21,198 nt of DNA, from the IMG/VR virus record IMGVR_UViG_3300017528_000016, positions 1-21,198 of that record. One strand, given 5' to 3'. Below the pieces are notes generated by a model that saw only the letters and a list, made by a program, of their open reading frames with translations, was not told the origin of the DNA and did not search any database. This document shows, piece by piece, positions 2,958 to 19,852 of the stretch. Position numbers and translations under genes: made by a program. Source of the DNA: a virus. The first letter of the stretch is position 1; each line of letters starts with the position of its first letter.

Positions 2958-3562
2958 GCGATATCCCGCACTTCGATGATCTTCAACTGCTGCCAATTCA
3001 GCAGCGCGCCGGTCGACTCGTCCGGCCCGAGCTTCGGCATATCGTCGGCGAAGCGGCAGGGGATATCGAACGAGCCGGTCCAACTCGTCGGGGTGCCGCT
3101 CGCTACGGTCACGATCCCGGTCGTGTAGTCGACGACGGGCGAGGCCCCGCCGGTGACGGCGACCGTCGGCGATAGCGGCTTCTGGATGATCTGGTCGCGC
3201 GTCAGGCCGCCATAGGAATAGCGCTTGTACATCTGGAACGTGGTCGAGGTCAGCATCGTAAAAACGCCGCTGCCGTTGTTCATCGACTCCGTATAGTCGC
3301 GGAAATCCTTGAACCGGAAAGCGAAGAGTTGCCCGTAGCAGACGTTGAAGAACGCGACGAGCGCCGACTGATTGAAGGCCGCGTTGGGCACGTTCTGCGA
3401 CATGAAGGCGTTGGAGATTTCCCACTCGCCGCGCGCCTGCGACCATGCGGCCGTGCGCGTCTCGTCGCCGCCGTAGGTCTCGATGACGTTCGTCTTGAAC
3501 CCGCGACCGCCGACGGCCCAATAGGCTATGAACTCCGGAAACCGTGGGGATTCGATGAACAT
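2954..3562 (-). CDS. Distal tail protein, DUF2460 family (GTA gp12-like)
   Basis: This 202-residue protein matches the DUF2460/TIGR02217 family: an N-terminal FPEFIAYWAVGG-type segment, then ETYGGDETR, ARGEWEISNAF, and FFNVCYGQLFAFRFKDFRDY, and a C-terminal FDIPCRFADDMPKL. Members form the distal tail ring that joins the tail tube to the hub. The ATG at 3562 shares one base with the tape-measure stop (TAATG), and its own stop overlaps the next start (TTGA). Length and order (tape measure, DUF2460, DUF2163, NlpC) agree with GTA-like siphophages. Nothing looks truncated. Confidence 0.9.
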   Translation of the reverse strand: MFIESPRFPEFIAYWAVGGRGFKTNVIETYGGDETRTAAWSQARGEWEISNAFMSQNVPNAAFNQSALVAFFNVCYGQLFAFRFKDFRDYTESMNNGSGVFTMLTSTTFQMYKRYSYGGLTRDQIIQKPLSPTVAVTGGASPVVDYTTGIVTVASGTPTSWTGSFDIPCRFADDMPKLGPDESTGALLNWQQLKIIEVRDIA

Positions 3563-6174
3563 TAGAGATTCCTCGCTGCGCCGCGGCGCACGCCGATGCT
3601 GGCCGCCGCCGCGATTTGCGTCTGCGTGCGCGTATCCACCGGGCCGGTTATGTTGAAGTGATTGTGTATCGCCATGCCGCCGCCGATCCCAGGCCTGTTG
3701 TACGCCGCCGGGATGACCGCCTCGCCCTTGTGTACGAATGCGAGCGTGTCCTGCGGCACGTACGGCGTACCGACGTCGAACGAGGCGAGGCCGCCGACCA
3801 GATCGCCGAAACCGAAGCCGCCACCGCCAGAAAACAGGCCGCCGACACCGCCGCCGAGCGAACTCGCGGAGCTCGCCGCGAGCGCCGCAGTATTCGCGGT
3901 GATCGCGCTCGTTAGCAGAGCAAGCGCGCTCGTATTCGCCGTCTCGGCCGCGATCTGCGGCGTAGCGCTGCCGCCACCGAAGCCGAGCGAGCCGACTAGC
4001 TTCGAGATGAAATCCCCGCCGCTAGTACCGGCCCCGAAGAACTGCTCCGTGACTTTGTTCGCCGCAATCTTGACGAGCGCGTCGTCGAGTTGCTTCAGCG
4101 CGTCGAGCATTGTCTGCTTCCAGCTTTTCGCGCCCGTAACCAGCGCCGCGAGCGTGTTGCTTATGCTCGACGTGATCGCGTCCTGCGCCTGGATGGCGTA
4201 CTTTTCGCGCTCCAGAACGGCGGCGTTGTCGATCTGCGTTAGTTGCTTCTGATACTCTTGCTCGACCTTGAGCAGTTGCGCTTTGAGTTCCGCGAGCTTT
4301 GTCGGGTCGCTATTGGGGTCGGCGGCCTCCGCTGCGATCCGCGCATTTATCCCATCAACCTCGGCCTGGAATGACTGGGCGATAAACTGCTTCTCGATCG
4401 CTAGTCGCTGCGTTGCGCTGATCTGCTTCAGCGATACCGCCTGATCGGCGGCCAGCTTGTTCATTTCGATATCGTGCTTCGCGGTTGCCTCTTGCGCCTT
4501 CAGCTCAATGTCGGCGATCTTGTTGCGCTGGTCCGCGAGTTGCTGCCGTAGGTCGACGAGTTTCTTGTACGCCGCAGCGGCTTGGACGGATTCGGCACCG
4601 TAGCGCTGGACGACGGCGTCGTATTCCTTCTGCTCGATGGCGATCTTCGCGTCGATGTTGTGCCCGAGCGCCGCCTTCTCGTCTTCGAGCTTGCCGAGAT
4701 ACGCGGCGAACGCGGCCTGCTGCACCTTGCGTTCCGAGTCGTAATACTTGTTCTGGACTTCCTGCCGGTCCTTGGCCGATAGCGTCGCGAATTCTAGGAC
4801 TTGCGCCCAGTAGTCGCGCGTCATGTCCTCGGACCACGTCTCGAAGCTGCCTTGCTGTATCTTGAGGTTGTTGTATGCGCTCTCGGAGGCTTTCAGTACC
4901 GCGTCCCAGCCGCCGATATCGGACGCGGCGGCGGTCTTCGGCTTGGGAACGAACGAGTCCTTCCCAGTACCAAGCGGCCCCGGCCCTGGTTTGCCAGGAC
5001 CGCCAGCGCCACCGAGTAGCGCGAGCCGCTTTTGCAAATCGGCTTCCATGCCGAGAATTTCGGCATTGCCTTCGAGTTGGATGCGCTCGCGCTTCTTCAT
5101 GCCGGCGTCCCAGATAGCGGAAGCCGCAGCCCAGCCGTCCGTGAACAGCGCCTTCGCGGCAGCCCAATAGGTAGCCTCGGAGACAAGGTTTTGCTGGTCG
5201 AGATTCTTGAGCTTTGCCGAGAGTTCGGCGAAACCGTTCGCGACGAAGTCGGTCGTTACCAGAAGGCCGGTCATCACCTTGATGAACACCTGCGCTGCCG
5301 CAGGCCCCGTCTCGTTGAAATACTTGGCGAGGTTCTGCAAGTGCGGGATGACCTTAACGCCGATCTCGTCGGCTGTGATGCCGATCATTTCCTTGAACGC
5401 GCCGACCTCGATCTGGTACTGCCGGAGTTGCGCCTGCTTTTCCGGGCCGAACTCCACGTTCATGTCGGCCATCAACTGCCGCGCGCGCTCCTGCGCCGCC
5501 GGCAGGATGACGATCATCCGGTAGACCTCTTCGACGCTGCGGCCGAAGAATTGCAGCGCGAACTCGGCTTGGTCAGTGCCAGCTTTAAGCTGCTGCATCC
5601 GCGTGAACGCGTTCTGCATGATCGTGTCGAGCGGCAGCAGCGAGTTCGTCGAATCGCGGGTAGCGATTTTGTTGCGGTTGAACTCTTCCTCGTTCGACTT
5701 AAGTTGCCGCGCCATCTTCAGCGCGAGGCCCGTATACGCTTCGGCGCTGCTGCCGGCGATCCGCAGCGCGATGGCGAACTCCGTCGCCTTGTCGCTCGCC
5801 ATCCCCATGACGTTTTCGAGCGTCGTCACCTCCTTGTTGAACTCTATGAGGTGGCTGACCATCGCCGAGAAGAGCGCGCCGCCCGCGAGCACGGCGCCAA
5901 CCGCGGCAAGCTTAGTGCTGAACTGCTCGACGAGGCTATTGATACTGCCGAAGCGCAGACGGACGTTTTCGTGCAGCGCCGCGAACGCCGCCGACATACC
6001 GTCCGTATGTTCCTTAACGGCGCCATGCGTCTTTGCCGACTGCTCGGTGAATTTGACTAGCGCACGCTGCATCGCATCCAGGGAGTTAGCTATGGACTGC
6101 TGCGCGTTCTCCATACCGCTCGTCGCGGCCGATGTGTCGGCGCCTAGTTTTACCTGGACGGAATCGTCGGCCAT
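3562..6174 (-). CDS. Tail tape measure protein
   Basis: At 870 residues this is the longest gene in the window. It is largely alpha-helical, with long heptad-like stretches at about 330-390 and 500-680. A hydrophobic segment lies near residues 90-112 (AAVGAVLAGGALFSAMV), and Gly/Ala/Phe-rich segments near 760-800. Such proteins set tail length, fill the tail tube and help DNA cross the inner membrane. The C-terminus carries HNHFNITGPVDTRT, a beta segment common at the end of proteobacterial tape measures. It lies directly after the chaperone frames, one base past the stop of the frameshift extension, with AAAGG 7 bases before the ATG. No lytic transglycosylase or peptidase domain is apparent. 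Confidence 0.92.
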   Translation of the reverse strand: MADDSVQVKLGADTSAATSGMENAQQSIANSLDAMQRALVKFTEQSAKTHGAVKEHTDGMSAAFAALHENVRLRFGSINSLVEQFSTKLAAVGAVLAGGALFSAMVSHLIEFNKEVTTLENVMGMASDKATEFAIALRIAGSSAEAYTGLALKMARQLKSNEEEFNRNKIATRDSTNSLLPLDTIMQNAFTRMQQLKAGTDQAEFALQFFGRSVEEVYRMIVILPAAQERARQLMADMNVEFGPEKQAQLRQYQIEVGAFKEMIGITADEIGVKVIPHLQNLAKYFNETGPAAAQVFIKVMTGLLVTTDFVANGFAELSAKLKNLDQQNLVSEATYWAAAKALFTDGWAAASAIWDAGMKKRERIQLEGNAEILGMEADLQKRLALLGGAGGPGKPGPGPLGTGKDSFVPKPKTAAASDIGGWDAVLKASESAYNNLKIQQGSFETWSEDMTRDYWAQVLEFATLSAKDRQEVQNKYYDSERKVQQAAFAAYLGKLEDEKAALGHNIDAKIAIEQKEYDAVVQRYGAESVQAAAAYKKLVDLRQQLADQRNKIADIELKAQEATAKHDIEMNKLAADQAVSLKQISATQRLAIEKQFIAQSFQAEVDGINARIAAEAADPNSDPTKLAELKAQLLKVEQEYQKQLTQIDNAAVLEREKYAIQAQDAITSSISNTLAALVTGAKSWKQTMLDALKQLDDALVKIAANKVTEQFFGAGTSGGDFISKLVGSLGFGGGSATPQIAAETANTSALALLTSAITANTAALAASSASSLGGGVGGLFSGGGGFGFGDLVGGLASFDVGTPYVPQDTLAFVHKGEAVIPAAYNRPGIGGGMAIHNHFNITGPVDTRTQTQIAAAASIGVRRGAARNL

Positions 6175-10416: not shown

Positions 10417-12066
10417 TTAGCTCTTGACTCCTGTGATCACACCGTATGCGGGCGGGAAATACATCTGCAAGACGGCGTCGAAATACACGCCGAGCGTGCG
10501 CTGCATCGTGACCACCGGCCAATCGACCTGCCAGTAATCGCGACGGCAGAGCTTGCGGATGATATTGGGCACGTTCGAGAGCGGGTACGGGTTCGTGCGC
10601 GAATAGAAGATGATCGTCCCCGCGGGGATAAACGGGTGCACGTGCACGTCCAGGAACGGATTGCCGAAGCCGATCGGGTTGACGTAGCGCTTGAGCACCG
10701 TCGAAGCGTTGAGCCCGCCCTCGCTGGATGAGCCGAGGAAGAACGGCGCCATGTTGGTGTTACCCGTCAGCACGATCGCCGCGGCAGCCAGCATATCCTT
10801 GACGTTCATGTAAATGTCCGTCGGGACGAGCCGGAAGTTGTTATACATCGAGATCAGCGCGTTGTTCCACTCCGTGATCTGCCCCGAACCCGCGCCGGCG
10901 GAGGTCAGCGCTGCGCCGCCGAGGTCGGCGACGTAGCTGCCGCTGCCGGGGGCGAGGATTTGGGTCAGCAGGCCGTCGTAGTTCAGCGTATTGGTCGATG
11001 TATCCGTCGCCGGCAGCGCCGTTGCGGCCTGCCCGGTGGAGTTGAGCGACGTGATCGTGACCGCCGGGTAGCCGGTGATCGCGACGAGCTTCTCGCTACC
11101 CGCCGTCAGGCCCGCATACCAAGCGTAGCCAATCGCGCCGTTGGTCTTCGCGACTGTCGCGGTGATCGAAGCGTGGTTCGTGCCGCCGCTGACATTGATC
11201 GCCCCGGACGCCGCCGACTGGATTCCCGAGAAGCCCTGGATCAGGTCCGTCGAGCCGTCCAGGTTGGAGCGCGTGTACGGCAGTTGCACCAGCCCGCCCG
11301 CCGGGACCGCAGCCGCGCCCGTGCCGGTGACGGTCGGGAACGTCGAGGTCTGCATCCCCATGTAGGTCAGCGCGACGACGATGACGCTGTACGTCGAGCC
11401 GTCCGCCAGCGTGCCGCCGGTCAATACGGCGGTGCCGGCCGGGGTCGCTGCCGTGCCGAGCAAGAGCGACGAATTGCCGCCGATGTCCAGCCGCTCTTCG
11501 CCTTCCATCGTGCCTTGCAGGGTCGTGGTCGCGGCGAGCGCCATCAGGTCTTCGAACGTGACCGCGGCGAGGTACGCCTGTTCGGTCACGAAGTTGTCCA
11601 GGCCCGAGGTGCGGAATGGCGCCGTCTTGTCGACAACCGTTTGCGCCATTGCCGGGCCGCGGTGGCCTTCCGACAGCCCGATGTTGATATTGCTCGGGTT
11701 GATCGCGGTCAGCGCGCGCCAGTTCGATTGGATACCCGTCCCGCCGGTGACGCGCGGAATCTGGTTGCGAAAGATCGTCGTGACCGGGTAGAGCAGCCGC
11801 GCGCCCTGCTCGAGGTCGTACTGCGCGAGGCCCGACGTGGCCGAGCCGGGCTGCGTAAACGCCTTCTGCATCTGCCCGTGCGGGCCGCCGTATGTTTTTT
11901 GCAGATACTCGCCGGTAAGCACCTTCGGCGTACCGTCGTCGGCGAACAGCGCCGATTTCATCGTGACGATGGCCTTGGCGATCTTCTCGGGGTCGTTGCC
12001 GATGCTCGGGTGCCACGGCACGCCCTTGAACAGTTGCAGTACGTTGTTGCTTACGTTCGCATCCAT
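10417..12066 (-). CDS. Major capsid protein (HK97-like fold with inserted domain)
   Basis: This 549-residue protein follows the protease-scaffold gene and has a strong AGGAG nine bases before its ATG. The core segments include LLYPVTTIFRNQIPRV, a helix TEQAYLAAVTFEDLMALAAT at about 161-180, and the C-terminal part PTDIYMNVKDMLAAA, GFGNPFLDVHVHPFIPAGTIIFY and QRTLGVYFDAVLQMYFPPAY. These fit the large capsid proteins of this phage type. Residues of about 205-350 are Gly/Thr/Ala-rich and beta-like, with a fibronectin-like end (AIGYAWYAGLTAGSEKL); this looks like a surface domain inserted into the HK97 fold. The family usually has about 300-400 residues, so the insertion explains the extra length. 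Confidence 0.88.
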   Translation of the reverse strand: MDANVSNNVLQLFKGVPWHPSIGNDPEKIAKAIVTMKSALFADDGTPKVLTGEYLQKTYGGPHGQMQKAFTQPGSATSGLAQYDLEQGARLLYPVTTIFRNQIPRVTGGTGIQSNWRALTAINPSNINIGLSEGHRGPAMAQTVVDKTAPFRTSGLDNFVTEQAYLAAVTFEDLMALAATTTLQGTMEGEERLDIGGNSSLLLGTAATPAGTAVLTGGTLADGSTYSVIVVALTYMGMQTSTFPTVTGTGAAAVPAGGLVQLPYTRSNLDGSTDLIQGFSGIQSAASGAINVSGGTNHASITATVAKTNGAIGYAWYAGLTAGSEKLVAITGYPAVTITSLNSTGQAATALPATDTSTNTLNYDGLLTQILAPGSGSYVADLGGAALTSAGAGSGQITEWNNALISMYNNFRLVPTDIYMNVKDMLAAAAIVLTGNTNMAPFFLGSSSEGGLNASTVLKRYVNPIGFGNPFLDVHVHPFIPAGTIIFYSRTNPYPLSNVPNIIRKLCRRDYWQVDWPVVTMQRTLGVYFDAVLQMYFPPAYGVITGVKS

Positions 12067-12118: not shown

Positions 12119-13792
12119 CTAGCTAATGAGCTCGTTGACCGCCTTTGCAACCGGGTCGGCCGGCGCGTCGTTGGTCTTGCGTTCGGTTTGTGGATCGGAC
12201 CGCGCGACTTCCTTGGCTACCGTGCGCAGCATGATGTGGGGTACCGGCATCTTCTTGAACTGTTCGACGATGGCGGTCAATTCGGTGACGCGCGCCGAGA
12301 GGTCGGCGACCTTCGCCAGCCCTTCGGTCTGCGCGGACTTCGCGCTCTCGGCGTTGCACTCGGCGCCCATGCTCGCGGCATGGTCGTGTATCGCCTGCAT
12401 CATGTCGGCGTGCGCCTTGGGCATCGCCTTGGCAACTAGCGCGTCCTGCAATGCCTTGACGGCCTTATCGACCGTCTCGCCGGGCTTCACGGCCGCCGCG
12501 CGTTCCTCGACGGTAAGCTGCTCGGAAGCGAGCTTGAACAGGTCCGCGAACGGCATCGCCGCAAACGACTTGCGCAGCGTACCGGCGCGCGCCGCGGCCT
12601 CGAGCGCTTCCTCGATCTCGTCATCCGCGCCGACGCCCGCGCCTGCCTTGAGCTCTGCCAAGCACTCGTCGGCCTCCTCGGCGCTCATGTCCTTGAATAC
12701 GGCAATCGCGTCCGCGAGCACGTTGCGCAGCTTCATCGGCACAGGCGAATCGTCGCCCTCGGCCTCGAGGTCGTACTGCGCGCTGCGGCAGACCCCGGCG
12801 AGGCATTCGATGCACTCGGCAAAGTTCTGCACGCTCCACATACCCTTCTTGAGCGCGATCTCGGTCGTAACCGTCTTCTCGCCGTCCTTGGTCCATGCGT
12901 CCGGGAGCTTGTCCGTCGCGCCGAGCGCCTTGGCGCGCTTGATGATGTGCGCCTTCGCCGCGGCCTTGTCCTTGGCGCGGCCGAATGCGCGCACCGCATT
13001 CTCAAGGTCGCCCACGCTCTTGATCGGGAACGAGCCGTCGGGCAGGGCCGCGCCTTCCTTGGCCGCCGCCTTGCGTTCGTCGCTGGAAAACTCGCGCTTG
13101 GCCGCCTCGAGCTTCTCGATCTCTTCGACGGTCGCGAGCATATAGCGCTCGGCCTTCGCTAGCGCCTCCGCAGCGACGGACTTCTGTACTAGTTCCATCG
13201 CCGCGCCGATCGACACGCCGTTGTCGGCGAGCAGCTTCGCGAACGCATCCGCCTGCTCGGGCGAACCCTCGACTTTGATCTCCTGCACGAACGCGCGCTT
13301 CTCGATACTACCGTCCGCCTTGATTACGTCGAAGAACCGCGCCGTAGGAATGCAAGGGTTATCGACAAGCGATATTTCTGAGGGTCGCGCGACGTAACGC
13401 TTAATCGTCCGGTCGCCTATCTGCTCGCTGACCTTCTCGCCGACATAGTCGCCCCCCATTGAGAATCCCGTATAAACCCCCTCTTCGCATTTCTTCCACT
13501 CGTTGTCGTCGACGACCTTCGTGCCGATATCGAACGCTTTATCCGCGTCGTTCGCGTTGAGCGCGATTAGCTTGCCGGCCGCTACCTTCCCATGCATCGC
13601 GCGCAAGTTCCCGAGCGACTTGCCATCGGTCGCATCGGATATCGTCTTCGACCACTCCATGAAATAGGGCTTGGACTTCTCGTAGTCGAACATCTCGTCG
13701 ACCTTGTCCGGCACTTCGTGCGCAGCACGGCCCCAGACCTCGCGACGGGCGACGTCGATCTTGGTGATCGGTACGAACAGATTCATTCCCAT
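12119..13792 (-). CDS. Capsid maturation protease fused to scaffold-like domain (XkdF-like)
   Basis: The 557-residue product appears to join three parts. Residues 1-155 resemble XkdF/U35-type prohead serine proteases: a KIDVARREVWGRA strand, a MHGK motif that could supply the histidine, GVYTGFSMGG, and SEISLVDNPCIPTARF that could supply the serine. About 250-300 is a DUF6582-like segment (SFPIKSVGDLENAVRAFGRA then AAAKAHIIKRAKALGA). The rest is acidic, Ala-rich and helical, with a coiled-coil-like end, as expected for a scaffold that is digested on maturation. A perfect AGGAG sits 7 bases before the ATG at 13792. The gene directly precedes the capsid protein. Which residues are catalytic is inferred from pattern only. 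Confidence 0.82.
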   Translation of the reverse strand: MGMNLFVPITKIDVARREVWGRAAHEVPDKVDEMFDYEKSKPYFMEWSKTISDATDGKSLGNLRAMHGKVAAGKLIALNANDADKAFDIGTKVVDDNEWKKCEEGVYTGFSMGGDYVGEKVSEQIGDRTIKRYVARPSEISLVDNPCIPTARFFDVIKADGSIEKRAFVQEIKVEGSPEQADAFAKLLADNGVSIGAAMELVQKSVAAEALAKAERYMLATVEEIEKLEAAKREFSSDERKAAAKEGAALPDGSFPIKSVGDLENAVRAFGRAKDKAAAKAHIIKRAKALGATDKLPDAWTKDGEKTVTTEIALKKGMWSVQNFAECIECLAGVCRSAQYDLEAEGDDSPVPMKLRNVLADAIAVFKDMSAEEADECLAELKAGAGVGADDEIEEALEAAARAGTLRKSFAAMPFADLFKLASEQLTVEERAAAVKPGETVDKAVKALQDALVAKAMPKAHADMMQAIHDHAASMGAECNAESAKSAQTEGLAKVADLSARVTELTAIVEQFKKMPVPHIMLRTVAKEVARSDPQTERKTNDAPADPVAKAVNELIS

Positions 13793-14331: not shown

Positions 14332-15129
14332 CTATGCGCCTTCCTCGGTGTAGTCGACGACCGGCGAGATCACGCACCGGCAATTCGGGTGGGCCGGCGG
14401 CGCATCGTCGCCGCTCGGGTAGTCGTCATCGAGCGGGAGTACGCCGTCGCCGTCGACGCCTGCGGCGGCGTTGTCCAGGCAATCCTCCTCGACGAGATCG
14501 TCCTCGGCGGTGATCCATTGCTTCGCCGCAACGGCGCCGCTCGCCTTGTAGCCCGAGAGCGCGCCGGCGTTGGCCGCCATCTGCGTCTCGGTGCGCGCGA
14601 TCGTCATGGCGCGCTCATCGGAGAAGCCGTAGCTGTCGGCAATAGCGCCCGCGAGTTTGTCGTTCGACCAGCCGCCTTCGATCGCATCGCTGACGGCGCC
14701 GCGTAGAAAGTCGCGCGTGGAATCATCGATTGCCCACTGAGCAGACGGGTTCTCCACGAGCCGCCCGAGCCCGTCGTAACGCATCCCGACGAGTTCAGCC
14801 GCGCGATCGCGAGCGTAAGCCTGTGCATAAGCGTTAACGATGCCTGTAGCGCCCTCCGCCGCCAGCACATCGATTCCAACCTGTTCAAGCGCCGCATAGC
14901 TTCCGTCCGCCACGATCGCTTCGAGGATGGGGCCGATATCGCCAACGAGTACGGACCAGCCGGCAAAGTCAACGCCAGCGAGCACGCGGTCGATCGCATC
15001 AAGCTCATCCTGTGAGAGTTCAGCTTTGCCAAGCCGGGCGCGCTCGCGCGCGATCTGCGCGGCGAGCTTCGGCGCTTGGGCGCGGAAGAAAGAGCGGATG
15101 GTTTTGGCGAGCTCATTGCGCTTGGTCAG
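14332..15129 (-). CDS. MuF-like head morphogenesis protein, unusual start (CTG or frameshift from portal)
   Basis: The C-terminal part is MuF/SPP1 gp7-like: MTIARTETQMAANAGALSGYKASG, KQWITAEDDLVEEDC and HPNCRCVISPV, given as spaced family marks. The N-terminal helical part (KTIRSFFRAQAPKLAAQIA, then ELDAIDRVLAGVDFAGW) is also typical, so translation must begin upstream of 15000. Yet the frame has no ATG, GTG or TTG between the upstream in-frame stop (15197-15195) and the internal GTG at 14985, which would remove about 48 family residues. Two routes remain. One is a CTG at 15129 overlapping the portal stop as CTGA (265 residues). The other is a -1 frameshift from the portal at 15183-15189 (841-residue fusion). 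MuF proteins are minor head proteins placed inside the capsid. Confidence 0.85.
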   Translation of the reverse strand: MTKRNELAKTIRSFFRAQAPKLAAQIARERARLGKAELSQDELDAIDRVLAGVDFAGWSVLVGDIGPILEAIVADGSYAALEQVGIDVLAAEGATGIVNAYAQAYARDRAAELVGMRYDGLGRLVENPSAQWAIDDSTRDFLRGAVSDAIEGGWSNDKLAGAIADSYGFSDERAMTIARTETQMAANAGALSGYKASGAVAAKQWITAEDDLVEEDCLDNAAAGVDGDGVLPLDDDYPSGDDAPPAHPNCRCVISPVVDYTEEGA

Positions 15130-16856
15130 TAGCGATCGGCGCCCGCTATCAAGTGCAACGAGCGTGCGGCGCCCCGTAGACCTTTTCCCACCTTACCGGC
15201 GACCCCCGGCGCCGGCGGCTGTCCCGGTCCGGGCTTCGGCGCGAGCGCGGCTTGCGCCTTGATCTTGTCCTGGTTGCGCTTGTCTTCGTCCTGCTGCTGG
15301 TCCGGCGGCAGCACGGTCGCGGTCACGGTCGCCGCGAAGTTCGGCATGTCCATCTGCGCGCGCATATCGTCGCTCATCGGCTCTTCGCCGAGCTTGGCAC
15401 GGACCTCGTCCGGGTGATAGACCTTCGCGTCCGTGTACATCTTGAACCGCGTCGCCTCTTCCACCGGGTCGGTCGACTCCTCCTCGTCCCAGCGAAAGAC
15501 GAGATCGCGCCGCCCATACTTGACGCGGATCAGGTGATTGAAGAGGTCCGCGATGTAGCTCGCATACGGCAGCGTGCCCTCTTCCTTCTGCTGCTCGGCG
15601 TGCGTCTGCCCGCTGGCGCGGTTCATCATCTTCACGAACGGCATCGGCGAGAGCCCGAAGCCGAAGCAGAGAATACGGATAACCCATTCGTCCGTGGCGT
15701 CGGTCAGCGCCTCTTTCTTCGCTTCGTACGGCGCTGTCTTACCACCGGGCAGGAACCGCACGCCGCGACGGTTAGCCAGATTGCCGACCAATACGGAATC
15801 AAACCACGCCTGAAACTGCGCGATCATGTCCGGGTTCCAACTATCCGGCGTACCGACCATCATGTCTGGGATGCTCCCCGCCGTGTAGAAATCGAGCAGG
15901 AAATCCTCGCGCTTGGTCGCGATCTCGATCGTGCGGATGATCCACTCGCACGCGCTGTAGCCGTAAGGGATATCGACCCGCGGGCTGCGCGGCTTGTAAA
16001 GCAGCTCCGGATACTGCTGCCCGCTCGGGTCCGTCGGTATCGGCTGGCCCTTCGGCACGGGCTGGATGTAGTCGACCGCCGGCAGGCCGTGGAGTACTTG
16101 CTGATATGCGGGCCCGAACTCCGGCGGCGGGATGCGCCCGTCCGCCATGATCTTCGGCGCGAACTTCGAGCCGTCGAGGATTTCGATCGAGTAGAGGTCG
16201 CCGCCGTACGTCGGCCGCAGCCATAGCGCCGGGGCGTCGTACACGATCACTTGCTCGAGCAGCAGCTTGGTCCAGTCGTACCACGTATGTGCGCGGTCCG
16301 GGTACGCGAGCATATCCTCGATCGCGTCCATGTCCGCATCGCGCGCGCCCTTCTGCCCCGACTTCTTGTCCCGCGGGCCGATGCTCCACGACATCGTCGT
16401 GACTTCGTCCTTTACGCGCTCGATCATGATGCGGACCAAGTCGAACTCGGAGAGCGCTTTCAGGATCGGGAAGCCGACCTTCAGGCCCGTGCGCGGCGTG
16501 ATCCTCGTATTCCAGCCGGGCGGAAAGTCCCACTTGCGGCCGAGCGCGCCCATGTCCAGCGGCTGCGCGATCGGCTGTAACGGCTGCTGCGGCGGGAAGA
16601 GCACGCGGCCGGCATCAGCGCCGAGGATGCGGATCGCGAGCGCGGCGGCAAGACGATAGCCCGTGCCGCGGTTGCCGTAGCCGCCGGCGACCATCGGTAC
16701 GCCCGACGGCGCGCCGAGGTATGAGCCATCGGTCGGGAGCTGGGGCGCGAAGAGCGGCGTCTCCGTGCCCGGCATCTGCGAGAGCGCGCCGCGATAGGCG
16801 TCGAGCTGTACCGGCGTCGGGTACTCGAACGGCTGCGAGGTAGTGGCGCGGGCCAT
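15126..16856 (-). CDS. Portal protein
   Basis: The 576-residue protein has portal-like segments: FPILKALSEFDLVRIMIERVKDEV, MSWSIGPRDK, DWTKLLLEQVIVYDAPALW, a helical LLDFYTAGSIPDMMVG, DSWNPDMIAQFQAWFDS, and VKMMNRASGQTHAEQQKEEG. Those marks are spread over residues 130-450. The C-terminus is Pro/Gln-rich and ends in a basic Gly-rich tail. Portals form the dodecameric ring through which DNA is packed by TerL. The ATG at 16856 overlaps the stop of the preceding small frame (TGATG). At codon 557-558 there is a G GGA AAA slippery heptamer, after which a -1 shift would enter the MuF frame; normal reading adds 18 residues and stops. Confidence 0.92.
   Translation of the reverse strand: MARATTSQPFEYPTPVQLDAYRGALSQMPGTETPLFAPQLPTDGSYLGAPSGVPMVAGGYGNRGTGYRLAAALAIRILGADAGRVLFPPQQPLQPIAQPLDMGALGRKWDFPPGWNTRITPRTGLKVGFPILKALSEFDLVRIMIERVKDEVTTMSWSIGPRDKKSGQKGARDADMDAIEDMLAYPDRAHTWYDWTKLLLEQVIVYDAPALWLRPTYGGDLYSIEILDGSKFAPKIMADGRIPPPEFGPAYQQVLHGLPAVDYIQPVPKGQPIPTDPSGQQYPELLYKPRSPRVDIPYGYSACEWIIRTIEIATKREDFLLDFYTAGSIPDMMVGTPDSWNPDMIAQFQAWFDSVLVGNLANRRGVRFLPGGKTAPYEAKKEALTDATDEWVIRILCFGFGLSPMPFVKMMNRASGQTHAEQQKEEGTLPYASYIADLFNHLIRVKYGRRDLVFRWDEEESTDPVEEATRFKMYTDAKVYHPDEVRAKLGEEPMSDDMRAQMDMPNFAATVTATVLPPDQQQDEDKRNQDKIKAQAALAPKPGPGQPPAPGVAGKVGKGLRGAARSLHLIAGADRY
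15138..15189 (-). promoter_or_regulatory. Candidate -1 frameshift signal at portal/MuF junction
   Basis: The heptamer GGGAAAA (15189-15183) is in the portal frame as G GGA AAA, which fits the X XXY YYZ rule; lambda gpG/gpGT uses the close G GGA AAG. Nine bases downstream a 6-bp stem is possible between GGCGCC (15168-15173) and GGCGCC (15138-15143) with a 24-base loop. A -1 slip enters the MuF frame only a few codons after that frame's TAA stop (15197-15195), so nothing blocks it. Confidence 0.5.
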
Positions 16857-17344: not shown

Positions 17345-17613
17345 GGCCCAGTCGGCCCTGTGGTACCCGTGGACCCTGTCGCCCCGGTCGCGCCGACGGT
17401 CCCCGCCGTACCGCCGGTGCCGCCGACAGCGCCCGTAGGGCCGGTAGGACCGACGCCGCCGACCGAGGCCGCGACGTAGAAGCCCGCGCTGAGCAGCGAA
17501 GGCACCGCGTTGTCCGGCACCGTAACCTGGCCGCCGACGACCGGATAAAGCACCCCGTCGCTGCCATACGCGCTCGAGACGCCCGCCGGGGCTTTCAGCG
17601 TAACGGTCGTCAT
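17341..17613 (-). CDS. Collagen-like protein 3 (short)
   Basis: A 90-residue product with the shared N-terminal domain (residues 1-51, with [27 protein letters not shown] and LLSAGF). About 13 Gly-X-Y triplets follow, mostly Gly-X-Thr ([20 protein letters not shown]). It ends right at the last triplet, with no C-terminal knob. Start and stop both overlap neighbours as ATGA. It is the shortest of the four family members in the window. Collagen-like rods of this kind could be capsid or neck fibres, since the genes lie between terminase and portal. Confidence 0.82.
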
Positions 17614-18020
17614 CCGATGATCCCCGTACCGCCGGTCGAGCCGGTAGCACCCGTTGCGCCGGCAGGCCCGAGCGGTGCCGCGCCGGTTACGCCGGTCGTG
17701 CCCGTCGTACCCGTACCGCCGACCCCGCCGATATGTCCGCCCGCGCCAGCTGCCCCGGTATTTCCGGTAAGGCCCGTCACGCCGGTGGTCCCGGTGCCGC
17801 TGATATGCCCCGCCGCGCCTGCGGCGCCGGTTGCCCCGTTCGCCCAGTTCCAGCCAGCGAAGAGCAGCGCCTCGCTGTAGGCCGCTGGCGGGATCACGAG
17901 CAACCGCCCGCCGCTGACCGCCGTCGCCGGGTACATGATGCCGTCCGCGCCGAGCACCTGCGTTACCGCGATCGAGGCCGCCGATGCGGGGAGGAAAAGC
18001 CGATAGTTGCCGTCGCTCAT
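17610..18020 (-). CDS. Collagen-like protein 2
   Basis: The 136-residue product has an N-terminal beta-rich domain of about 61 residues ([40 protein letters not shown]). Some 25 collagen-like triplets follow, with three short interruptions (GHISG, GHIGG and AAPLGPAG). Unlike its neighbours it starts after a 24-base gap, with GGAG seven bases before the ATG at 18020, so it can be initiated independently. Its stop overlaps the next start as ATGA. The N-terminal domain aligns by eye with those of the other three collagen-like proteins but diverges more. Confidence 0.82.
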
Positions 18021-18044: not shown

Positions 18045-18418
<374 letters not shown>

Positions 18419-18422
<4 letters not shown>

Positions 18423-19852
18423 CGCGAAAGCCCTTTCGTTGGCGCGCCGGGGAAGCCGGTCTGCGTGGTCGTGAAGGAAGAGGGGAGCAGCGTCCCCGCC
18501 GGCGGCTGGACTTGCTTGCCGGCGAGGTCGCGGTAGAAGTTGAAGACGCCCAAGCCCGACTCGTCAGAGAGTTCGGTCAAGGCCCAGACGAGCGCGTCCA
18601 TGCGGTCCGGCGAATACGGCGACGTCAACGGATCGTAGTCGCACATCTGGTCTTCGAGTTGCGGGAACGAACCGACGTGGTGCACGCGGCCTTGCTCGTA
18701 GAGCGCGGCAATCGGCTCGGCGCGGATCATCTTGCCTCGGCTAGCGGTGACGGCTTTGTAGCTGACGTTCTGGTCGACCGTGCGAATGGTCAACTCGACC
18801 ATATCGCCGCCATTGTTCACCTCGGCGACGAGGCGATCAGCCTTGCGATCGTGATACAAGCGCACCGCAGCGCGCGCCCAGGCTTCCGGCGATGCGCGCA
18901 AGCTGACATCGTCAAGCACGTAGAACGCGCCATCAAGGCTGCGTCCGCACGCGATGATCCCGGCCTCGTCGCTATCCTCTCTGTTCGTGACCGGCGGATC
19001 AACCGCGACGACAATGCGCCGCATCGCCGGCGCTTCTGTAACGCGGCTGGCGTCGATCTGTGCGCGCTGCCATAGCGCGCCGGGGTTGTCCTCGAGCAAC
19101 TCGGCATTGAGCTCCTGCCGCCCTAGTCGCGTACCCTCGTACTTGCGGATGATGGTCGAGTAGAACGTGCCGGCGAGGTTGGCGCGGTTCGCGTAGGTAT
19201 CGCCGCCGGTAATCACCGTCGCCGGATCGCGCATCAGCGCCTTGACCATCGGCGTCGGCCGCGGCGTTGTCGTTACGACCGCTTGCGGCGATGATCCAAG
19301 CCGCAGGCCGAGCTGCGCTTGATCCCATGACTCCGGATAGCGCCAAGCGGCGATCTCGTCTGCCCAGAGCTTCTCGTGCTGCTTACCGCGCAAGCGCTCG
19401 GGCTCGTCTGCGGTAAATATCAACGACCGAGAACCGTTCGGCCAGCGTAATTGCCGATCGACATAGCGCGGCCGCTCATGGTTCGGGCACACAGCGAGGA
19501 TACCGCTCTCGCCCTGGATCATGATGTCGCGCGCATCGTCGAGCGTCGCGCCGATGAGGTTGACATAGCGGAACTTGCGCGACCACGCCCGCACCTGCTC
19601 AGCTCCGGCGCGCGTCTTGCCGAAGCCACGACCAGCCTTGAGCAGCCAGAAGGTTTTACTACCCGCGGCGAATTCTGCCGGTGGTAACTGCTCTGCGCGC
19701 GCCCAGAAATTCCAGTCGAAGAGCAGCGCGGAGAGTTGCTCATTGGAGAGTTGCTCCGTCGCTTTCCGAACTATTTCTGGCGGCAAAGACCGAACCCAAT
19801 CGGCCGAGAAGCGCGTCCCTGGCGTCATCAACTGCGATAGGGATTGGGTCAC
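18419..19852 (-). CDS. terL: Terminase large subunit
   Basis: The 477-residue protein carries the full TerL set. The ATPase has a Walker A-type motif at about 73-80 (AGRGFGKT), a Walker B-type motif at 161-166 (KLWADE), and the coupling motif VTTTPRP at 193-199. The RNase H-like nuclease shows VVAVDPP with Asp285, LVAEVNNGG with Glu344, and [12 protein letters not shown] with Asp416 and Asp419. It pumps DNA through the portal and cuts concatemers. The N-terminus (LPPEIVRK...[16 protein letters not shown]) matches GTA-type terminases, so coding must reach at least residue 23. Starts are GTG 19852 or ATG 19828; neither has a strong ribosome site. Either choice overlaps the small subunit frame by 89-113 bases. 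Confidence 0.95.

What the first reader, a model, noticed from the sequence alone, without database searches (positions are those of the whole stretch)
15126..15200. Portal and MuF genes may be joined by a programmed -1 frameshift
The MuF frame has no ATG, GTG or TTG before 14985, yet MuF-like coding sequence clearly extends upstream of it. In the portal frame there is an exact slippery heptamer G GGA AAA at 15189-15183, close to lambda's G GGA AAG. A GGCGCC/GGCGCC stem can form 9 bases downstream. The -1 frame opens only two codons before the heptamer (TAA at 15197-15195). The shifted product would be an 841-residue portal-MuF fusion made alongside the 576-residue portal, so a few MuF domains would be placed inside the capsid at the portal ring. 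The alternative is a CTG start at 15129 overlapping the portal stop. I do not know of a described portal/MuF frameshift.
Basis: partly seen in the sequence, partly recalled or inferred. Interest (0 to 1): 0.82.

Follow-up and report, generated by a model that had tools for sequence, protein, structure and literature searches.

The report
Frameshift-made portal–MuF fusion in phages
Many phages of this kind carry a conserved ribosome-slippage signal at the join of two capsid genes, so one message probably gives both a plain DNA-gate (portal) protein and a few copies with an extra internal (MuF) domain; sequence comparison supports this strongly, but no experiment has tested it.

Summary
On the minus strand the portal ORF (16856-15126) carries an in-frame G GGA AAA (15189-15183); MuF lies in the -1 frame, open from one codon before the heptamer, with no ATG/GTG/TTG before 14985. 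All near relatives that have MuF next to the portal, but L018, keep a slippery heptamer although both proteins have diverged.

The comparison goes well beyond the window. Of 46 deduplicated relatives with MuF in the -1 frame, 32 have a classical in-frame slippery heptamer in the overlap (1.4 expected). All 22 that lack a canonical MuF start have one, against 10 of 24 that have a start. Only 2 of 33 relatives without a detected MuF do. Shifted products align without a break to natural in-frame portal-MuF fusions, and the stretch between slip site and portal stop encodes the MuF motif only in the -1 frame.

In-frame fusions also keep slippery codons at the join (KK coded A AAA AAN: 32/55 there, 5/127 elsewhere), suggesting a reverse, dnaX-like wiring. 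A CTG start may coexist. The proposed GGCGCC stem is not supported; a conserved upstream GGGGGU is a candidate stimulator. I found no published portal/MuF frameshift in the papers searched.

The parts
15126..16856 (-). portal protein ORF, 576 aa, 0 frame
   Evidence: Pfam PF04860 E 1.1e-11; phrog_2662 positions 22-465, E 2.6e-55
15183..15189 (-). slippery heptamer G GGA AAA in the portal frame
   Evidence: conserved in L004/L001, L005, L006, L008, L022, L023, L257 and L242
15202..15207 (-). GGGGGU, Shine-Dalgarno-like element 12 nt upstream of the heptamer (candidate stimulator)
   Evidence: best 1% of anti-SD pairing in W, L001, L005, L006; kept at 12 nt in that clade and 15 nt in L022/L023; the encoded PGV is conserved too, so not decisive
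14332..15192 (-). MuF open frame (-1 relative to portal); opens after TAA 15195-15193, no ATG/GTG/TTG before 14985
   Evidence: Pfam PF04233 E 5.4e-14; phrog_2662 positions 484-712, E 3.1e-28
15139..15153 (-). MuF N-terminal motif LDSGR (family form I/L-D-x-D/E-R), in the -1 frame upstream of the portal stop
   Evidence: motif in the -1 frame 12/33, other frames 0/33, 0.09 expected
15127..15129 (-). CTG overlapping the portal stop TGA (15128-15126): possible weak reinitiation start for free MuF
   Evidence: CTGA kept in L001/L005/L006, TTGA in L017/L022/L023
14335..16856 (-). predicted -1 frameshift product, 841 aa portal-MuF fusion (558 portal residues + 283 MuF residues)
   Evidence: one unbroken match of 803 bits to a profile of natural in-frame fusions
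18419..19852 (-). terminase large subunit (context: head module)
   Evidence: phrog_979 E 2.3e-39
12119..13792 (-). likely head maturation protease (context)
   Evidence: weak PHROG matches phrog_9427, phrog_34096
10417..12066 (-). probable major capsid protein by position (context)
   Evidence: phrog_13692 E 2.5e-108, function unknown; capsid role inferred from gene order

Best explanation
Most ribosomes translate the portal gene to its TGA and make the 576-aa portal. A minority slip back one base when GGA and AAA of G GGA AAA are in the P and A sites, read on in the MuF frame, and make an 841-aa portal-MuF fusion. Fusions enter the portal ring with plain subunits, so a small number of MuF domains are placed at the portal inside the capsid. 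In the wider family the slip site, not the frame of MuF, is the conserved feature: where MuF is in the -1 frame slippage makes the fusion, and where MuF is in frame slippage would make a truncated portal. Shown: conserved site, frame, motif and product homology. Inferred: that slippage happens, its rate, incorporation in the ring, and function.
For: (1) Near relatives keep G GGA AAA in frame with MuF in -1, despite rare codons. (2) 32/46 deduplicated -1-split loci have a classical heptamer in the overlap, 1.36 expected, maximum 9 in 200,000 simulations; 22/22 without a canonical start, 10/24 with one, p=1e-5. (3) Heptamers differ (GGGAAAA, AAAAAAG/A/C, CCCTTTN, TTTTTTT, GGGAAAG), yet 30/32 are all-purine or all-pyrimidine, the shift-prone rule measured in E. 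coli (PMC4066793). (4) Portals without a detected MuF: 2/33. (5) Shifted products match a profile of natural fusions across the junction in 31/32; the -1 reading beats the 0-frame reading in 21/22 and the +1 reading in 21/22; MuF motif upstream of the stop only in -1. (6) In-frame fusions keep slippery codons at the join: KK 32/55 vs 5/127, PF 4/8 vs 1/85. (7) Fused/split states change 19 times by parsimony on the portal tree, 11 of them forced by well-supported branches.
Against: No experiment. G_GGA_AAA was called inefficient in earlier E. coli work (PMC4066793). No conserved downstream RNA structure at split sites. CTGA at the portal stop is also conserved, and 10 loci with a heptamer also have an NTG start near the stop. 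Loci are related, so counts are not independent.
Confidence: 0.85

Rival explanations
1. MuF is a separate protein started at the CTG that overlaps the portal stop (CTGA), by termination-reinitiation; the heptamer is incidental.
For: NTGA overlaps with ATG/GTG/TTG are common among split relatives, and CTGA is kept in the window's closest relatives.
Against: CTG is a weak start. TAT TGA would give a TTG start silently in both frames, yet the four clade members examined keep TAC TGA. Some heptamer relatives end in TAA or TAG with no start nearby (L039, L053, L145, L234). A CTG start omits the conserved motif upstream. Heptamers are about 24-fold over chance.
Confidence: 0.1
2. Both are used: frameshifting makes a portal-anchored MuF, and reinitiation makes some free MuF.
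For: 10 of 32 heptamer loci also have a canonical start near the portal stop, including L017, L022 and L023 close to the window.
Against: In the window the start would be CTG, with no evidence that it is used.
Confidence: 0.25
3. The two frames are joined by transcriptional slippage, not ribosomal slippage.
For: In relatives with A-type sites, runs in the split class are 8-10 A, long enough for RNA polymerase slippage.
Against: The window and its clade have only A4 after G3, and other relatives have CCCTTTN; these do not suit polymerase slippage.
Confidence: 0.04
4. Sequencing or assembly error, or a decayed fusion gene.
For: Relatives exist as intact in-frame fusions.
Against: The same split is found in the window and several distinct contigs of its clade; errors would go both ways, but all heptamer splits are -1 and the four +1 splits have no classical (A/T-type) heptamer; MuF stays conserved.
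Confidence: 0.01

Closest known systems
Lambda gpG/gpGT tail-assembly chaperone -1 frameshift (G GGA AAG) and relatives
   Same: -1 slip at an X XXY YYZ heptamer near the end of the upstream gene makes a minor C-terminally extended product beside a major short one; site and frame conserved more than sequence
   Different: Different genes (portal and MuF, head module), different product role; relatives also occur as in-frame fusions that keep the slip site
dnaX tau/gamma frameshift
   Same: In-frame fused relatives carry A AAA AAG/A with a -1 stop a median of 12 codons later, so slippage would make a shorter product from the same gene
   Different: Different genes; only inferred here; no conserved hairpin shown
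In-frame portal-MuF fusion genes (phrog_2662; Brevundimonas phages Strzyga and Polewnik; Arthrobacter phage Sonali; Microbacterium clusters EA3/EA5/EA8/EB, PMC7302621)
   Same: Same two domains in the same order; shifted window product aligns end to end with such fusions
   Different: Here MuF is in the -1 frame and needs recoding
SPP1 gp6 portal / gp7 MuF
   Same: MuF protein targeted inside the capsid by the portal in 1-2 or a few copies (PMC5576092, PMC6316719)
   Different: SPP1 uses two separate genes and non-covalent binding
Lactobacillus phage A2 and T7 capsid frameshifts
   Same: Frameshifting gives an extended minor form of a virion head protein (A2 cited in PMC10885494; T7 from own knowledge)
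   Different: Major capsid protein, not portal

Membership tests
Programmed -1 ribosomal frameshifting | X XXY YYZ heptamer in the 0 frame inside the overlap, with the -1 frame open | tested here: met
Programmed -1 ribosomal frameshifting | Site conserved beyond coding need across homologues | tested here: met
   codon-choice test
Programmed -1 ribosomal frameshifting | Stimulatory element (upstream SD or downstream structure) | tested here: inconclusive
   SD-like GGGGGU conserved in the window's clade, no general downstream structure
Programmed -1 ribosomal frameshifting | Measured trans-frame product | not testable with these tools
   needs reporter assay or mass spectrometry
Portal-MuF fusion family (phrog_2662) | Portal and MuF parts both match, colinear with natural fusions | tested here: met
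Lambda G/GT tail chaperone frameshift | Genes are tail assembly chaperones upstream of the tape measure gene | tested here: not met
   genes are portal and MuF; the tape measure is at 3562-6174
Translational coupling (NTGA reinitiation) | Canonical ATG/GTG/TTG start overlapping the upstream stop | tested here: not met
   window has CTG; met in some relatives
dnaX-like frameshift to a truncated product (in-frame fused relatives) | In-frame slippery site kept by codon choice | tested here: met
dnaX-like frameshift to a truncated product (in-frame fused relatives) | -1 stop soon after the site, closer than chance | tested here: inconclusive
   median 12 codons, only slightly closer than chance (p=0.04)
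Transcriptional slippage | Homopolymer run of about 9 or more | tested here: not met
   window has A4; relatives of the A type have A8-A10

The most novel reading that the evidence does not exclude
A phage family regulates the portal : portal-MuF ratio with one conserved slippery site whose wiring flips in evolution. Where MuF is in the -1 frame slippage adds MuF (lambda G/GT-like); where MuF is in frame slippage removes it (dnaX-like). A one-base indel swaps the roles while both products are still made. This would be a general way to set how many portal subunits carry an internal capsid or cargo domain.
Probability: 0.6. Interest if true: 0.85.

Novelty: new variant of a known kind. Interest (0 to 1): 0.76.

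Why it matters
The portal is a single 12-subunit ring, and phages that bring MuF inside the head need only one or a few copies. A frameshift-set fusion would give a translational way to fix that number and break the ring's symmetry. MuF domains also carry toxin or effector domains in other phages, so the same logic bears on how cargo is loaded. It also corrects annotation: such portals lose a C-terminal domain, and such MuF genes are called too short or missed. The repeated switching between fused and split forms around a kept slip site would be a natural experiment on how recoding sites evolve.

Tried and rejected
GGCGCC stem: can form but is no more stable than chance and is not conserved. 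General downstream structure: split sites mean z 0.04; in-frame fused sites -0.56, weak. AlphaFold model of MuF from five sequences: mean pLDDT 44, discarded. Single-protein genome-contig scan: one relative, an in-frame fusion in Neisseria sicca. Whole-genome draws (1,137 genomes): the handful of prophage relatives were in-frame fusions or had no detected MuF, and no heptamer was found near their portal ends. Cultured phages: the close relatives inspected are in-frame fusions or annotated as single portal genes. Papers: portal/frameshift/MuF searches found no described portal-MuF frameshift; only open-licence papers are held. Sequencing error and transcriptional slippage were considered and set aside for the window (see rivals).

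Full report
What was checked. The window is a 21,198-base virus record. On the minus strand it has a head module: terminase (18419-19852), portal (15126-16856), MuF (open frame 14332-15192), a likely maturation protease (12119-13792) and a likely capsid protein (10417-12066).

First surprise: relatives are fused. One PHROG family, phrog_2662, matches both the portal (profile 22-465) and the MuF frame (profile 484-712), so natural members are single portal-MuF proteins. The Brevundimonas phages Strzyga and Polewnik are such in-frame fusions. Portal-MuF fusions are described for Microbacterium phages (PMC7302621).

The window's clade. IMG/VR contigs with portals about 69% identical to the window all keep AAG NTG GGA AAA with MuF in -1 and no canonical start at the stop. 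L022 and L023, and L257 which is 57% identical to L023, keep the heptamer too; L018/L256 in the same group has an ATG start and no heptamer. GGA and AAA are minority codons in these portals (8.5% and 20%). Two relatives of this group with no MuF after the portal (L255, L021) have no slip site.

The family. I collected 321 sequences (320 loci and the window) by portal and MuF similarity and classified them with profiles. After deduplication: 89 in-frame fused, 46 split with MuF in -1, 4 split in +1, 2 other. Of the 46, 32 have a classical heptamer (X XXY YYZ, Y = A or T) in frame in the overlap; the in-frame rate in portal bodies (24/20,829) predicts 1.36, and 200,000 simulations never exceeded 9. 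Every one of the 22 without a canonical start within -45 to +30 of the portal stop has a heptamer; of 24 with a start, 10 do (p = 1e-5). Portals without a detected MuF: 2 of 33. Sites are GGGAAAA (7), AAAAAAG (9), AAAAAAA (8), AAAAAAC (1), CCCTTTC/T/A (5), TTTTTTT (1), GGGAAAG (1). All-purine or all-pyrimidine heptamers are by and large the shift-prone ones in E. coli (PMC4066793); 30 of 32 are of that kind.

The stretch between slip site and portal stop is read in the MuF frame. In fused relatives MuF begins with KK...PIDRDRPAV-like sequence. In split relatives the same motif appears in the -1 frame upstream of the portal stop, for example KK AITPLDPERKSLL (L017), KK AFTPIDQERAAV (L053), KK IPRIDRNRKLV (L068), and LDSGRRSLL in the window. 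The motif is there in -1 in 12 of 33, never in the other two frames, with 0.09 expected after shuffling portal codons. Against a profile built only from natural fusions, shifted products align as one block across the junction in 31 of 32, and the -1 reading scores higher than the 0-frame tail in 21 of 22 (median 8.8 bits, p = 5e-5). A MuF started at the CTG would lack this part.

Second surprise: in-frame fusions keep the slip site. 55 of 89 have an in-frame heptamer at the join. In GC-rich ORFs, Lys-Lys pairs at the join are coded A AAA AAN in 32 of 55 cases, elsewhere in 5 of 127 (p = 8e-16); Pro-Phe pairs C CCT TTN 4 of 8 against 1 of 85. So the nucleotides, not only the amino acids, seem selected. 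A -1 slip there would end a median of 12 codons later and give a portal without MuF. On the portal tree the fused and split states change 19 times by parsimony, 11 forced by well-supported branches. I read this as one conserved recoding site that yields both products in either wiring. The relatedness of sequences makes the p-values too strong; the contrast is large enough that I trust its direction.

Stimulators. No general downstream structure was found at the split sites. In the window's clade GGGGGU, complementary to the anti-SD, lies 12 nt upstream (15 nt in L022/L023). It is a candidate of the dnaX kind, but the encoded Pro-Gly-Val is conserved as well.

Mechanism and role. The simplest account is ribosomal -1 slippage giving a minor fusion that takes its place in the portal ring. 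SPP1 gp7, the studied MuF, binds the portal and is present in 1-2 or a few copies, and virions without it are less infectious (PMC5576092, PMC6316719). A weak site such as G GGA AAA would suit a low copy number; this is inference. For A8-A10 relatives polymerase slippage may act instead or as well; it does not suit the window's site.

Novelty. Programmed -1 frameshifting in phages is well known in tail chaperones, and in some major capsid genes. I found no described portal-MuF case in the papers held. I therefore call it a new variant of a known kind. The novelty lies in the gene pair, the ring-stoichiometry implication, and the flip between two wirings.

Noticed in passing
[quoted passage not shown] A noncanonical frameshift is possible.
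   Followed up: partly
window 17610-18020 and 18045-18422, minus strand: Two short collagen-like Gly-X-Thr repeat proteins lie between terminase and portal; a similar repeat frame follows the portal in relative L255, which has no MuF there.
   Followed up: partly
L154, L157 (near the portal end): AT-rich relatives use T TTT TTT as the slip site, with the -1 frame opening exactly at it; their contig names suggest isolate genomes.
   Followed up: no
L039, L053, L145, L234: Relatives whose portal stop is TAA or TAG and whose MuF has no start at the stop: the cleanest cases for frameshifting without a reinitiation rival.
   Followed up: partly
L092 versus L074/L082: A split locus with no heptamer lies among nearly identical in-frame fusions, so it may be a recent or erroneous frameshift.
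   Followed up: no
NC_049478.1 gene 3 (L095): The portal-MuF fusion of Arthrobacter phage Mufasa8 is annotated as MutT/NUDIX hydrolase in RefSeq.
   Followed up: no
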